This document shows positions 32,186 to 39,594 of a stretch of DNA of 39,594 nucleotides, one piece after another. The position numbers were made by a program, and so were the translations under genes. This DNA comes from Thermoleophilia bacterium. GTDB lineage: Bacteria > Actinomycetota > Thermoleophilia > Solirubrobacterales > 70-9. The stretch's first letter is position 1; each line of letters starts with the position of its first letter. The DNA is taken from positions 1 to 39,594 of the forward strand of contig JAENWT010000021.1 in the NCBI GenBank assembly GCA_016650125.1, given 5' to 3'. The notes below the pieces were generated by a model, which made no database searches, was not told the origin of the DNA, and saw nothing but the letters and a program-made list of their open reading frames with translations.

Positions 32186-32256
32186 TGGTCTTGGCGATGA
32201 GTCGGGCGATTCAATGCGAATCTGGCTATCGCACTAATAAGTCAGACGACTTGCCG

Positions 32257-32301
32257 TCTACGAAACCGAAGGTCACTGGTTCGAATCCAGTCGGGCGCAC
32301 T
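32257..32301 (+). repeat. att copy B: 3' part of tRNA-Arg
   Basis: Exact 45-base copy of 28384-28428. The 5' half of the tRNA is absent (cgacttgccg precedes it), so this is not a working tRNA. It forms the junction between islands 1 and 2. Confidence 0.85.
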
Positions 32302-35031: not shown

Positions 35032-35910
35032 TTATAGATCGGTGTTAGGGAAGAGTGACTTGGTGTCACCCCAGGTATGCGGACCGAACTTGAACAGCCC
35101 GTATATCCGGTTTAGCTCAGTACCTAGCTCTGCCGGTTCTGCCCCAACGAATCGCGCGATCGACTTCCTCTGCGGAGATATCCGCAAACGAGCGAGGATC
35201 CGATCTTCCACGATGCGGTCGTCTCGATCCGCTCCAGCGCAGTAGAAACCGGATCTCTGTCCTCCCTGAGCTTGACGAGCCGCAACGAGAACATCGAACT
35301 CTGCGAGCGCTGTGGACAGATACTCATCGAGCTGAAGATGCGGATATCTCTGCTCGAACAGGTCAAGCTCAGATATCCACTCAGAATGACTATTGAAGGA
35401 AGCTAGTGGACTGCTTTCGAAGGCCTGAAGCACTCGCGCGGACTTTGCATCAAGCATCGACTCATTGCCCCAGCCAACGCTGGGCTTGATTGAAATGAAG
35501 GGCAGGCAGACCAGAAAGTCAATCCTGCCTAACGCCACAGCGAAAGCTCCGACTGTCCAAGTCAACCGAACCGCGATAGCCGTGATGGTCTGCCACCATC
35601 CCGGAGCAGTCGTTTCCTGTCTAGCCACCGACACAATGCGATCAAGGCAAGCGACGACTATTTGATGGGATCTGTCATTCCCATATTCAATTAAGGGAAA
35701 TGCGCAAGCCAGAAACTGTTGGACCTCGGCATCTATCTGAGCGATCACCTGCTCGACAGCCATCCCGGGTGAAGAAACGGCATTTCTCTTCTGCCCGTCG
35801 ATCGCTTGATGAAGAAGCACCGTGGCATTCTTGAGTTCATCTTCTGCGCCAACCACGTTTCCCTGGCCAAGAAGTTCACTGACCCGAACATTTGCCTCAG
35901 GAGCACCCAT
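35032..35910 (-). CDS. Unknown protein coupled to the DUF4062 protein
   Basis: This 292-residue protein starts at an ATG overlapping the previous stop by one base (TGATG), so the two are translated as a pair. Near residues 105-140 is a hydrophobic region (ITAIAVRLTWTVGAFAVALG, then FLVCLPFISI) that could cross or bind the membrane. The rest is helical and polar, ending with an Arg-rich stretch (RILARLRISPQRKSIARFVG). I recognise no domain. As the second gene of a DUF4062 operon in a mobile region, an effector or membrane-damaging role is possible, but this is inference. Confidence 0.6.
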   Translation of the reverse strand: MGAPEANVRVSELLGQGNVVGAEDELKNATVLLHQAIDGQKRNAVSSPGMAVEQVIAQIDAEVQQFLACAFPLIEYGNDRSHQIVVACLDRIVSVARQETTAPGWWQTITAIAVRLTWTVGAFAVALGRIDFLVCLPFISIKPSVGWGNESMLDAKSARVLQAFESSPLASFNSHSEWISELDLFEQRYPHLQLDEYLSTALAEFDVLVAARQAQGGQRSGFYCAGADRDDRIVEDRILARLRISPQRKSIARFVGAEPAELGTELNRIYGLFKFGPHTWGDTKSLFPNTDL

Positions 35911-37040
35911 CAGGAATGAACTGCGTTGGCGTCGGCGAACTTGCGCTTCGTTTCCGCGAGTAAAGATCGCGTCAGCGCTTCCGATCCGAGATCCTCTCGA
36001 CGAACTTGCCTAGGAGGGTTCGGTGCGAGGACTACTGCTGGAAGACCCATTGGCACAGACATGGAGTTGCCGGGTTCGGTTTCAGCAAAGAGCTTGTGCT
36101 GAGCATCTGGCACGGCGACTATGGCCATGGCATAGCGGATGTCATGGCCTTTGTCGATTTCGTGCCAGACGGCGAGAGCAAAGGTCTGAGTTTTCTCGAT
36201 CAAGCTCTTGAGTCCGTTGGCCATGACTACGCCCGAACCGAAATGGGCCGCTTCCCCGCCCACGGCCCCTTCACTCACGATTGAGCCGTCAGCTCCCACC
36301 CGAAATTGAAGCTCTTCCCACGCACCCTCGGCCTTGGCGACAAACTCGACTCCTTCAGAAGAAACGCTTTGCGTAATGGCCATCGCATTCGATGTCAATC
36401 CACTGGTTCTGGTCATTCCCAGAATCCTGTCGATCAAGCCATCGTCGTCGAGATCCTCTGCGTCGAGAACAGTTGCTTGCCTAGATGGAGCAATGACGAC
36501 TCGTGCTTTGGACCCAGAAGCGACGTATCCCCTGGTGCCGGACCCAGCAGCCAGATCCACAACCTTTTCAAAGGCAGCGCCGAGTTCTTCCTGAGTGAGA
36601 GGGCGCCTTCCACCTTCCAGAGTTTTCAGGGCACGAATCACAGCCAGTCCTATGTCAGCCGCCGATTCGAATCGTCCCGTCAGACGTCCCTCCTCCCAGC
36701 CACCTCGCACCCGGGCTCGAAACTCATCCTGAGCTGACTCAAAATCTATGCTCTGCTCCAAGACGAGTACCGGTCTTCCGAGTCTGACAGCCTCGTTGTA
36801 TTCGTCTTCTGTAGGGCTGAAGCCCGAGGCTCCACGCTCGCCATAGACCGGCCCGAGAATCAGAAGAAAGATCTCAGCATCTCGGACCTCGTCCAAAAGC
36901 GCTCGTTGCGGACTGTCGGGAGACGCTCCCGTCGTTTCAGCGGTCACAGGATGTAGTCCGTACGAGTCGATGGCATCGGCAGCAGCGCTCCGGACATCTT
37001 CAAAGTTCCTTTGAATCGAGCTCACGAACACAGAATCCAT
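35910..37040 (-). CDS. DUF4062-domain protein
   Basis: The N-terminus matches DUF4062, a TIR/nucleoside-deoxyribosyltransferase-like fold. It has VFVSSIQRNFEDVRSAAADA, then a long strand-helix part and EVRDAEIFLLILGPVYGE, followed by TEDEYNEAVRLGRPVLVLE. I take the ATG at 37040 (MDSVFVSS), about 376 residues, because DUF4062 proteins normally start just before V-F-V-S-S. A TTG at 37094 would add 18 residues of poor quality. The C-terminal 230 or so residues are unrecognised. DUF4062 is frequent in defence-associated and STAND-type proteins, where it acts as sensor or effector. The stop overlaps the next gene by one base. Confidence 0.75.
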   Translation of the reverse strand: MDSVFVSSIQRNFEDVRSAAADAIDSYGLHPVTAETTGASPDSPQRALLDEVRDAEIFLLILGPVYGERGASGFSPTEDEYNEAVRLGRPVLVLEQSIDFESAQDEFRARVRGGWEEGRLTGRFESAADIGLAVIRALKTLEGGRRPLTQEELGAAFEKVVDLAAGSGTRGYVASGSKARVVIAPSRQATVLDAEDLDDDGLIDRILGMTRTSGLTSNAMAITQSVSSEGVEFVAKAEGAWEELQFRVGADGSIVSEGAVGGEAAHFGSGVVMANGLKSLIEKTQTFALAVWHEIDKGHDIRYAMAIVAVPDAQHKLFAETEPGNSMSVPMGLPAVVLAPNPPRQVRREDLGSEALTRSLLAETKRKFADANAVHS

Positions 37041-37156
37041 GGCGCCCACACTAGTCATGGGCAAAGACGTTTCGATGGCTTCCGTTTTGGCCAATCGAAT
37101 GGTTTTTTCGTAGGGTCATATCTGTGGGAAGGATTCCCGAGGGAGAGCTTCATGAC

Positions 37157-37243: not shown

Positions 37244-37753
37244 TCAATTCTGGCTGCGTCGACGAAGCTCGTTTCCGTCGAGTGAGCTTCCCAGACGGTT
37301 GGCAGTCGCAGAATCGGGCAGCGGCACGCTGTTGTCGACGCCAGCTTCAATCGAGGTGATTCGTTCAAGAGCGGCGATCTCGGCATCCTCAATGGTGGGA
37401 AAAATGACAAGACCAGAGTCGAAAGTCTGATTGTTAATTTCAATGATGTACCCGTACGAAACACCAGGAGTGGCAGTATCAAAGGCTTTGCTCAAGTCGC
37501 TGTCCTGTTGAAAAAACTGAACCTGATAGTCACCGTAGTCGGCAACCTCGGCACGAAGAGCCGTCAGATCAAGATGCTCGCGCAAGCCGGAGAATTGCTC
37601 CAGCGTTGAGAACGCAGCCTTGATTACATCCGTGCGATTTTTCCAATCAGGCGACGATCGCGATTCGCTCTGCATCGGACCCTTGATTGTGTAAGCCGGG
37701 TTACCGTTATTGGGAAATAGAATTTCGATGTCATAGCCGTCGTCGTGAGGCAT
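37244..37753 (-). CDS. Hypothetical protein, 169 residues
   Basis: An acidic, soluble protein with no recognised domain. It begins YDIEILFPNNGNPAYTIKGP and has an even mix of strands and helices (GDYQVQFFQQDSDLSKAFDT, SYGYIIEINNQTF). The ATG at 37753 has an AGAAAG about 5 bases upstream. Codon use is less GC-rich than in the left half of the window, as for its neighbours. It has its own terminator and lies between two probable defence genes; it may belong to either or neither. Confidence 0.55.
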   Translation of the reverse strand: MPHDDGYDIEILFPNNGNPAYTIKGPMQSESRSSPDWKNRTDVIKAAFSTLEQFSGLREHLDLTALRAEVADYGDYQVQFFQQDSDLSKAFDTATPGVSYGYIIEINNQTFDSGLVIFPTIEDAEIAALERITSIEAGVDNSVPLPDSATANRLGSSLDGNELRRRSQN

Positions 37754-37894: not shown

Positions 37895-39340
37895 CTACGC
37901 TTTCACTGGTGAGGTGGCCGAGCCAGCGATCGTCAAGCTCTGGCGATACTCAAGCGCCTCCGGTGTTTCTTCGTACTCAAGAATGTCTCCGGCAACTTCA
38001 AGTAGCTGTTCTTTCACCTCGGCCGGAGTGGCATAGAAGAATTCCCGGCGCAGATTTACCCTGTTCACTCGACGATCCTTGAATCGTTCGTGGAGTTCTC
38101 TCTCGATACCGACGGCGTCGTCGGAGAAGAAGAGGGCGTGCGTGTCAAACCTGAATGGAACTGACGCATCACCTAGTTCCCGCACGCGGTCCATCGGCTC
38201 CAGCCGCCGGGTAAGTCCGATCTTGATGACGCTTTCGCCGAAGGTGCCGATATTGGAGATCACATAGACGTAACCGGCTCTGATGTTGGCCGCTCGGTAG
38301 TCCACGTCTTCGATTGCCTTTTGAATCTCGGCCATCTCTTCACGAAGCCGTGCCGCGGCTTCCTCATCACCGTTATCTTCGAGCTTCGCTAGGGCATTCT
38401 CGTAGTGGGTTCGTTCCTTCTCAAGGCGCTTGCGTTCGCGCTCCATTTCCTGCTGCACTTTTTGTTCTTCTCGCAGCCTCGCCCGCTCCTCTTTCTCCCG
38501 TTCTTTCTCCTCCGCCTTCATGTTGATGAAATCCGCGGTGAGTTCCAGCTCACGCCTTCTGAGTCCGTGGTAATGGCTCGAGATACGAATCTGCATCGTG
38601 ACTCCAAGCTTCGCGATTGTCGCTGCAACCTTTTCGAGTCGATCGAGTGACGTATCGAGCTTGTAGGGCTTCATTCCTCTGACAAGGTTGTCTGCCTCCG
38701 CGTTATAAGCGCGCAAGAGGAGCTTGGAGAAGTCGCGCACCATCTTCTTGCCCTGAGCCTTTGAATCATTGACGGTCCACTCCGTAACGGCTTCTACCGC
38801 GCCGCCGTCCTTACGGGTCATAGCGCGCATCTGATCTTTGAGGGCCTTCAGCTCTGCCTGGTAGGCAACCGAGTCATCAAGTGGATGCCGATACTCGTAC
38901 AGGCCTACCTCTTGCAGAATCTCTGTTTCCTGGGTGGTAACGATGCCTTGCTTCAAGAGTTCCAGCTCTTGTTTGCCGGCCGTTACGTTCGAATTCAAGG
39001 AGGCAATCTCTGCCCTTAACTTGTCTCGGTGCTCTTCAAGTTCGATCGCGGACTTGATGCCCAACTGTTCGATCTGCGATTCGAGTCGGGCTACTTGGGC
39101 GGCCAGCTCCTTTGCTTTCTTTCGGGCCCCGAAAACCGGGATGCTGTCACCTTGACTCTGTGATGTGTTCGCCTGTAGTACCTGGACTGGGGGAACGAGC
39201 GAATCGATGGGTGGCTCTCCGTGGATGTGCTCAGTCCACTTGACACCATCCCAGAACCTCAGTTGCGCAAGGCCAAGTGGATCTAGCTTCCATTCGGCAG
39301 TCGCATCTTCAGGCGCAGGACATTCGTCCAATGCAGTCAT
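37895..39340 (-). CDS. DUF2510-DUF4041-GIY-YIG nuclease, SNIPE-like
   Basis: This 481-residue protein has three parts. Residues about 16-40 match DUF2510 (LRFWDGVKWTEHIHG), a domain common in actinomycetes. Residues about 72-135 form a coiled coil. Residues about 140-275 match DUF4041 (FSKLLLRAYNAEADNLV, then the helix LRRRELELTADF), and a charged coiled coil continues to about 345. Residues 355-450 are a GIY-YIG domain of the T5orf172/MUG113 type: GYVYVI, KIGLTRR, R385, the catalytic Glu E413 in IERELHERF, and N429. GGGAGAGA lies just before the ATG. The DUF4041 plus GIY-YIG order is that of SNIPE, which cuts phage DNA at entry. Here DUF2510 replaces its membrane helix. Confidence 0.8.
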   Translation of the reverse strand: MTALDECPAPEDATAEWKLDPLGLAQLRFWDGVKWTEHIHGEPPIDSLVPPVQVLQANTSQSQGDSIPVFGARKKAKELAAQVARLESQIEQLGIKSAIELEEHRDKLRAEIASLNSNVTAGKQELELLKQGIVTTQETEILQEVGLYEYRHPLDDSVAYQAELKALKDQMRAMTRKDGGAVEAVTEWTVNDSKAQGKKMVRDFSKLLLRAYNAEADNLVRGMKPYKLDTSLDRLEKVAATIAKLGVTMQIRISSHYHGLRRRELELTADFINMKAEEKEREKEERARLREEQKVQQEMERERKRLEKERTHYENALAKLEDNGDEEAAARLREEMAEIQKAIEDVDYRAANIRAGYVYVISNIGTFGESVIKIGLTRRLEPMDRVRELGDASVPFRFDTHALFFSDDAVGIERELHERFKDRRVNRVNLRREFFYATPAEVKEQLLEVAGDILEYEETPEALEYRQSLTIAGSATSPVKA

Positions 39341-39472
39341 TGCTCTCTCCCATTCTGTAGGCCCGTTGGTGAAGCCCGTCGGTAGTCCATCCTATGGGCA
39401 CCAAGTTCGACGGATAAGTTGGGTCACGATTCAAGGGTCGTGAGAAGTCCCTATGAGGTGCACCCCCGAGAC

Positions 39473-39594
39473 TGAGCCACCCCTTGTGAGAGTCCAGAAT
39501 GTCCATCAGAATGGACAGACAAGGAACCCCGCAAGTGAAGAAGAGACGCCACACCCCAGAACAGATCACCAGGAAGCTCCGCGAAGCCGACCGC
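39473..39594 (+). mobile_element. IS3-like insertion sequence, left end (continues beyond window)
   Basis: A transposase orfA-like reading frame starts near 39511. The probable left end begins about 39473 (tgagccaccccttgtgag), inferred from distance to the gene because the right end is not visible. The palindrome TGTCCAT-CAGA-ATGGACA (39500-39517) covers the ATG; such stems in IS elements can block translation from outside transcripts. Confidence 0.5.
39511..39594 (+). CDS. IS3-family transposase OrfA, partial
   Basis: The frame reads to the end of the window without a stop. KKRRHTPEQITRKLREADR, at the end of the translated part, matches the start of the IS3/IS911-type OrfA helix-turn-helix proteins (K-RRHTPEQI-KLREAD). 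The start may be ATG 39511, ATG 39499 or, most like relatives, GTG 39535. OrfA is usually joined to OrfB by frameshift to make the active transposase. Confidence 0.65.
   Translation, partial: MDRQGTPQVKKRRHTPEQITRKLREADR

What the first reader, a model, noticed from the sequence alone, without database searches (positions are those of the whole stretch)
37895..39340. Actinobacterial SNIPE-like anti-phage nuclease with a DUF2510 front end
DUF4041 followed by a GIY-YIG/MUG113 domain with intact catalytic residues is the layout of SNIPE, which sits at the membrane and cuts incoming phage DNA. Here a DUF2510-like segment and a coiled coil take the place of the membrane helix. It lies in an accessory region next to tRNA islands and an IS element.
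Basis: partly seen in the sequence, partly recalled or inferred. Interest (0 to 1): 0.7.

Follow-up and report, generated by a model that had tools for sequence, protein, structure and literature searches.

The report
Anti-phage nuclease SNIPE, DUF2510 front end
The gene encodes an intact actinobacterial member of SNIPE, a known bacterial nuclease family that cuts phage DNA as it enters the cell, but its usual membrane-spanning helix is replaced by a small domain (DUF2510) and a short charged amphipathic segment, which raises a testable question about how it is held at the membrane.

Summary
Window 37895-39340 (minus strand) is an intact 481-residue ORF: DUF2510, coiled coil, DUF4041, long helix, GIY-YIG/T5orf172 nuclease. 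Its best defence-library match is PD-Lambda-1 (SNIPE), E = 7e-117. E413 aligns with SNIPE's essential E414. The gene is accessory: 1 of 50 genomes of its family has DUF4041, and it lies in a GC-poor stretch 113 nt from an IS3-like end.

Family membership is solid; defence and membrane tethering are inferred. DUF2510 is one of several exchangeable front ends: of 88 homologues (mostly actinobacterial), 22 have DUF2510, 46 a Pro/Trp-rich module, 2 a transmembrane helix. The window's DUF2510 resembles a membrane protein of its own genus more than any other SNIPE sampled. Similar leaders begin 37 of 53 helix-less viral-contig homologues against 1 of 11 with a helix; that pattern was defined after looking, and a held-out set was too small to settle it.

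Verdict: a SNIPE with a lineage-swapped front end that the main text of the SNIPE paper does not name. Moderate interest.

The parts
37895..39340 (-). SNIPE-family gene, 481 aa
   Evidence: ORF; PADLOC PD-Lambda-1 E 7.2e-117; PHROG 1847 E 2e-120
39345..39351 (-). Shine-Dalgarno-like GGGAGAG just upstream of the ATG
   Evidence: sequence read directly
39209..39292 (-). DUF2510 module (about residues 17-44)
   Evidence: Pfam PF10708
39137..39208 (-). Disordered linker (about residues 45-68)
   Evidence: AlphaFold2 pLDDT under 50 for residues 40-66
39071..39136 (-). Amphipathic basic leader VFGARKKAKEL and start of the coil helix (residues 69-90); candidate membrane anchor (inferred)
   Evidence: highest hydrophobic moment of the stretch scanned and net charge +3; motif shared across front-end types
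38909..39127 (-). Coiled-coil helices, residues 72-144
   Evidence: AlphaFold2 model
38558..38725 (-). DUF4041 (residues 206-261)
   Evidence: Pfam PF13250
38279..38557 (-). Long helical linker between DUF4041 and the nuclease (residues 262-354)
   Evidence: AlphaFold2 model
38006..38278 (-). GIY-YIG / T5orf172 / MUG113 nuclease domain (residues 355-445)
   Evidence: Pfam; Slx1 GIY-YIG chains among the PDB fold matches, weak E-values; T5orf172 proteins among viral fold matches
38102..38104 (-). Codon of catalytic E413, equivalent to SNIPE E414
   Evidence: alignments
39454..39594 (+). Left end of an IS3-type element, 113 nt upstream of the SNIPE start; the contig breaks inside it (context, not part of the gene)
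   Evidence: second copy at G000:C16:64880-65019; family judged from the OrfA-like reading frame

Best explanation
It is a single-gene SNIPE (PD-Lambda-1) anti-phage nuclease. Shown by sequence: DUF4041, a long helix and an intact GIY-YIG nuclease, with no transmembrane helix. Inferred by homology with the tested E. coli protein: DUF4041 contacts DNA and the phage's injection machinery, and the nuclease cuts the phage genome as it enters. Inferred from comparison: the protein is kept near the membrane, away from host DNA, by the amphipathic basic leader at the head of the coil (residues 69-79), possibly helped by DUF2510 docking on an envelope protein of this lineage. The DUF2510 front end is an exchangeable adaptor, probably taken from the lineage's own membrane proteins.
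For: Full-length PD-Lambda-1 match. Published tests show E414 and DUF4041 are needed for defence and that SNIPE without its membrane helix is toxic (PMC13190303), so a natural helix-less homologue needs another restraint. E413 and the other nuclease residues are intact. Patchy distribution: 1 of 50 family genomes, 13 of 396 phylum genomes including 3 below the family cut-off; relatives on Rhodococcus and Kocuria plasmids and on temperate phages Mask and Poushou. Front ends swap on the body tree: DUF2510 needs 7 changes, PGW 6, and the two Kocuria membrane-helix proteins group with a DUF2510 protein (support 92). The window's N-terminus scores 125 with DUF2510-membrane protein L217 of the same genus against 87 with the best other SNIPE. 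DUF2510-headed proteins carry a strong hydrophobic segment in 13 of 17 cases against 22 of 134 neighbour ORFs (p = 9e-7). Leader: 58 of 89 homologues against 5.5 expected in shuffles; 37 of 53 helix-less viral homologues against 1 of 11 with a helix and 40 of 623 control ORFs.
Against: No localisation, nuclease or phage data for this protein or any DUF2510 homologue were found. The leader could simply cap the coiled-coil helix. The leader pattern was written after seeing the sequences, related sequences are not independent, and the held-out set had only 8 helix-less members (2 with the leader against 0 of 39 with a helix, p = 0.026, and not different from control ORFs, p = 0.16). One 15-member clade lacks the leader. 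Residues around the mapped tape-measure contact differ from E. coli SNIPE, so the target cannot be carried over.
Confidence: 0.62

Rival explanations
1. A soluble SNIPE. It is not membrane-tethered; self-damage is avoided by autoinhibition or low expression, and DUF2510 recognises a phage or host factor directly.
For: No membrane helix; DUF2510 and leader have no known anchoring activity; the SNIPE paper infers an auto-inhibited state for the membrane-bound protein.
Against: E. coli SNIPE lacking its helix is toxic through its nuclease. DUF2510 and the Pro/Trp module head membrane proteins elsewhere, and helices and DUF2510 replace each other on the tree.
Confidence: 0.22
2. Same biochemistry, different beneficiary: a mobile-element weapon (superinfection exclusion or inter-element competition) rather than host immunity.
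For: Homologues sit beside integrase and repressor genes in phages Mask and Poushou, on plasmids, and beside a tyrosine integrase in a same-order genome; the window copy is beside an IS end in GC-poor DNA.
Against: No phage structural or integrase gene was seen in the window's accessory stretch, though the contig ends 254 nt upstream. Carriage by mobile elements is common for defence genes in general.
Confidence: 0.12
3. A non-defence or decayed gene, such as a phage BRO/T5orf172-like remnant.
For: The T5orf172 fold is common in phage proteins; accessory genes often decay.
Against: The frame is intact, every catalytic residue is kept, and the whole length matches PD-Lambda-1; no BRO-N or KilA domain.
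Confidence: 0.04

Closest known systems
SNIPE / PD-Lambda-1 (E. coli; Saxton et al. 2026, PMC13190303; Vassallo et al. 2022, PMC9519451)
   Same: Coil, DUF4041, long helix, GIY-YIG nuclease; essential glutamate; about 33% identity over 437 aligned residues; full-length family match.
   Different: No transmembrane helix; DUF2510, linker and amphipathic leader instead; residues aligned with the Bas14 tape-measure contact differ (E223 to L232, N250 to G259, W257 to E266).
SNIPE homologues without a membrane helix in the same paper (34% of its set; DivIVA-like, type III secretion ATPase-like, PH, DUF4428 front ends)
   Same: Helix-less SNIPE with an alternative front end.
   Different: DUF2510 and an amphipathic leader are not named in the main text; its Supplementary Table 3 could not be read here.
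Mycobacterium phage Mask gp44 and Rhodococcus plasmid DUF4041 proteins
   Same: Same DUF2510-leader-coil-DUF4041-GIY-YIG order; 46-47% identity over at least 94% of the protein.
   Different: Different branch of the body tree; carried by a temperate phage or plasmids.
DUF2510 (PF10708) proteins of the same genus, e.g. L217
   Same: N-terminal 43 residues (20 identical of 43).
   Different: They continue into a membrane helix and an unrelated C-terminus, not a nuclease.

Membership tests
SNIPE (PD-Lambda-1) | DUF4041 domain | tested here: met
   PF13250 E 2.9e-18, 65.9 bits against cut-off 27
SNIPE (PD-Lambda-1) | C-terminal GIY-YIG nuclease with the essential glutamate (E414 in E. coli) | tested here: met
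   T5orf172/MUG113 matches; E413 aligned and conserved in 88 of 89
SNIPE (PD-Lambda-1) | Full-length similarity to the family model | tested here: met
   PDLC03976 residues 72-474 of 481
SNIPE (PD-Lambda-1) | N-terminal device that holds the protein at the membrane (a transmembrane helix in 66% of published homologues, so a helix itself is not defining) | tested here: inconclusive
   No helix; DUF2510 and amphipathic leader present, function untested
SNIPE (PD-Lambda-1) | Anti-phage activity through cutting incoming DNA | not testable with these tools
   needs phage assays
SNIPE (PD-Lambda-1) | Accessory distribution | tested here: met
   1 of 50 family genomes; 13 of 396 phylum genomes, 10 over the family cut-off
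DUF2510 (PF10708) | Score over Pfam's cut-off and the W..DP..R(Y/F)WDG..WT signature | tested here: met
   24.3 bits against 24; whole-genome search 28.6 bits; signature WKLDPLGLAQLRFWDGVKWTEH
BRO/KilA-type T5orf172 phage proteins | BRO-N or KilA N-terminal domain | tested here: not met
   no such Pfam match
Two-gene SNIPE variant described in this report | Overlapping upstream partner gene | tested here: not met
   Partner homologues lie only in one clade of the fetched loci, not the window's; upstream of the window gene is the IS end

The most novel reading that the evidence does not exclude
Helix-less SNIPE proteins across phyla are peripheral membrane proteins: a short amphipathic, basic leader at the head of the coil replaces the transmembrane helix, and in Actinomycetota small Trp-rich modules (DUF2510 or the Pro/Trp repeat) are swapped in front of it, borrowed from the host lineage's own membrane proteins to set where in the envelope the nuclease waits.
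Probability: 0.3. Interest if true: 0.6.

Novelty: new variant of a known kind. Interest (0 to 1): 0.42.

Why it matters
SNIPE tells self from non-self by location rather than sequence. How the one-third of homologues without a membrane helix avoid cutting their own chromosome is open. This gene and its relatives turn that into a concrete test: delete the leader or DUF2510 from a natural helix-less SNIPE and look at toxicity, localisation and phage protection. Lineage-matched front ends would also show that the defence adapts its address label when it moves between hosts.

Tried and rejected
Single-protein scan of genome contigs found nothing because its patterns fell in variable regions; repeating with an alignment gave 80 loci. 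PDB sequence search gave no relative. PDB fold search gave no match at E 0.001 or better; the Slx1 matches (best rmsd 3.3 over 73 columns, E about 1) agree with a GIY-YIG fold but prove little. No paper in the library names DUF2510. The window's neighbours (ORF 37244-37753, DUF4062 protein, 292-aa protein) do not recur beside other SNIPE loci, so a multi-gene system is not supported here. The idea that DUF2510 alone is the anchor was dropped: its usual hosts have their own helices. The leader pattern was tried on a held-out set; mutual exclusion with a helix held (0 of 39), but only 8 helix-less sequences remained, several with doubtful starts, and they did not differ significantly from controls. 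The best-80 genome sample is biased towards the query; in the less biased phylum draw 2 of 9 full-length homologues had DUF2510 and 1 the Pro/Trp module.

Full report
What is there. The ORF at 37895-39340 (minus strand) is intact, 481 residues, starts at ATG with GGGAGAG upstream and reads, from the N-terminus: DUF2510 (about 17-44), a disordered linker, an amphipathic basic leader (69-79), coiled coil (72-144), DUF4041 (206-261), a long helix, and a GIY-YIG/T5orf172/MUG113 nuclease (355-445). AlphaFold2 with 72 homologues gives mean pLDDT 83, with residues 1-13 and 40-66 unreliable. The window is a whole contig, G000:C21, and the gene begins 254 nt from its end.

What family. PADLOC PD-Lambda-1, the library's name for SNIPE, matches at 7.2e-117. 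The E. coli reference used here is the protein annotated PD-lambda-1 in phage PhiR26_1; all nine residues numbered in the SNIPE paper (E223, N250, L253, W257, E264, K305, I308, T319, E414) fall on the stated letters. The window's E413 aligns with E414. In 89 homologues Y359, G375, R378, R385 and H417 are invariant and E413 is present in 88. All 72 members of the genome alignment match DUF4041 and PD-Lambda-1.

Is it housekeeping? No. DUF4041 occurs in 1 of 50 genomes of the family, with none of the other 17 genus members, and in 13 of 396 drawn across the phylum, three of them below the family cut-off. Relatives are on Rhodococcus, Kocuria and Curtobacterium plasmids and in temperate phages Mask and Poushou. 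GC falls from about 0.64 to 0.52-0.59 beyond 32 kb, and an IS3-like end lies 113 nt upstream. Around 15 DUF2510-type SNIPE loci the neighbours include integrases, AbiEi, IetA/IetS and Tmn-like genes, each in one or a few loci. No enrichment test was made.

The front end. Of 89 sequences classified (88 plus E. coli SNIPE), 22 have DUF2510, 46 a Pro/Trp-rich repeat (PPxGWPxPPxGWxPPxGWxPDPxW, here PGW), 17 neither, 1 a PH-like stretch, and 3 a membrane helix, one of them E. coli SNIPE. A few come from records labelled as other phyla. The sample is biased towards the query; the phylum draw gave 2 DUF2510 and 1 PGW among 9. On a tree of the bodies without the front ends, DUF2510 needs 7 changes and PGW 6, both far below shuffles but well above one, and the two Kocuria helix proteins group with a Curtobacterium DUF2510 protein (support 92). 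The nearest bodies to the window are PGW or leader-only proteins, not DUF2510 ones. The window's first 43 residues instead resemble DUF2510-membrane protein L217 of its own genus (score 125, 20 of 43 identical), ahead of all others (101 or less) and of any other SNIPE (87 or less). L217 was itself found by searching with the query, so the comparison favours such hits, but the SNIPE set was found the same way. I infer that the front end was exchanged for a local one.

What DUF2510 does is unknown. No paper in the library names it. Among N-terminal DUF2510 proteins in the phylum, 13 of 17 have a strong hydrophobic segment against 22 of 134 neighbour ORFs (Fisher p = 9e-7). A non-SNIPE PGW protein (L231) also runs into a polybasic stretch and a helix. 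Since those proteins carry their own helix, DUF2510 is more plausibly an adaptor beside the membrane than an anchor.

The leader. In E. coli SNIPE the membrane helix ends in KRIKK and runs into the coil. In the window protein the coil starts with VFGARKKAKEL. This [LVM]FG-x-(K/R) motif is found by a strict pattern in 58 of 89 homologues against 5.5 expected in shuffled N-termini, across all front-end types, and the helix at 73-90 has the highest hydrophobic moment scanned with net charge +3. In viral-contig homologues without a helix the protein usually begins with such a leader (MGLFDFLKVQEFK, MSLFGRKEKQEIE, MGFLDTFKGNQYK): 37 of 53, against 1 of 11 with a helix and 40 of 623 control ORFs. 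The pattern was written after seeing those sequences. On a held-out set it was in 0 of 39 helix proteins and 2 of 8 helix-less ones (p = 0.026), which is not different from controls (p = 0.16). So mutual exclusion with a helix held, but the general claim needs a larger test. A likeness to the membrane-binding helix alpha-0 of PspA/Vipp1 (PMC12358876, seen as an abstract) is a lead only. The word amphipathic does not occur in the SNIPE paper's main text.

Mechanism. Shown: architecture, intact active site, no helix, accessory distribution. From published work on E. coli SNIPE (PMC13190303): constitutive membrane localisation, cutting of phage DNA during injection, DUF4041 contact with DNA and tape measure protein, toxicity when the helix is removed. 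Inferred here: the same action, with the leader and perhaps DUF2510 doing the helix's job. The target phages cannot be predicted.

Known or new. It is a SNIPE by every sequence criterion tested. The paper already says that N-terminal regions are diverse and that 34% lack a helix. DUF2510 is not in its main text, and its supplement could not be read, so the novelty of the front end is provisional. PD-Lambda-1 has been annotated in Actinobacteria before, for example in 95 of 114 Clavibacter genomes (PMC11856565).

Noticed in passing
L003, L022, L073, L078, L080, L086, L089, L092, L095, L096, L099, L100, L101, L102, L228: Two-gene SNIPE variant: in one supported clade (SH-aLRT 99) the SNIPE lacks the leader, and a co-directional upstream gene of about 425 aa ends at or overlaps its start, usually by 4 nt. 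The partner has no Pfam or NCBIfam match but matches the N-terminal 380 of 544 positions of PADLOC's type IV restriction enzyme model (E 1e-32 to 8e-36), so the enzyme's C-terminal part is absent.
   Followed up: partly
window 35032-37094: DUF4062 protein (35910-37094) adjoining a 292-aa protein with a weak PDC-S65 match, same strand as SNIPE: a possible second defence pair.
   Followed up: no
window 37244-37753: 169-aa ORF just downstream of SNIPE with no family match and no homologue in the fetched SNIPE loci.
   Followed up: partly
window 32231-32299 (+): Sub-threshold tRNA-like match (25.8 bits against 29) at the point where GC drops; could be an attachment-site remnant or chance.
   Followed up: no
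L018:4443-6143: Curtobacterium plasmid SNIPE is split by one in-frame stop between the DUF2510-coil part and the DUF4041-nuclease part; annotated as two genes.
   Followed up: no
L231: A non-SNIPE protein in which the Pro/Trp-rich PGW module precedes a polybasic stretch and a membrane helix, like the DUF2510 proteins.
   Followed up: partly
L183 and L217: Apparent orthologues in two genomes of one genus share the membrane helix and C-terminus but differ in the N-terminal DUF2510 region, suggesting that this module is swapped in other proteins too.
   Followed up: no
L010-L013: Weak DUF4041 matches in short frames (139-163 aa) of four genomes of one phylum family (f11); probably a different protein.
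   Followed up: no
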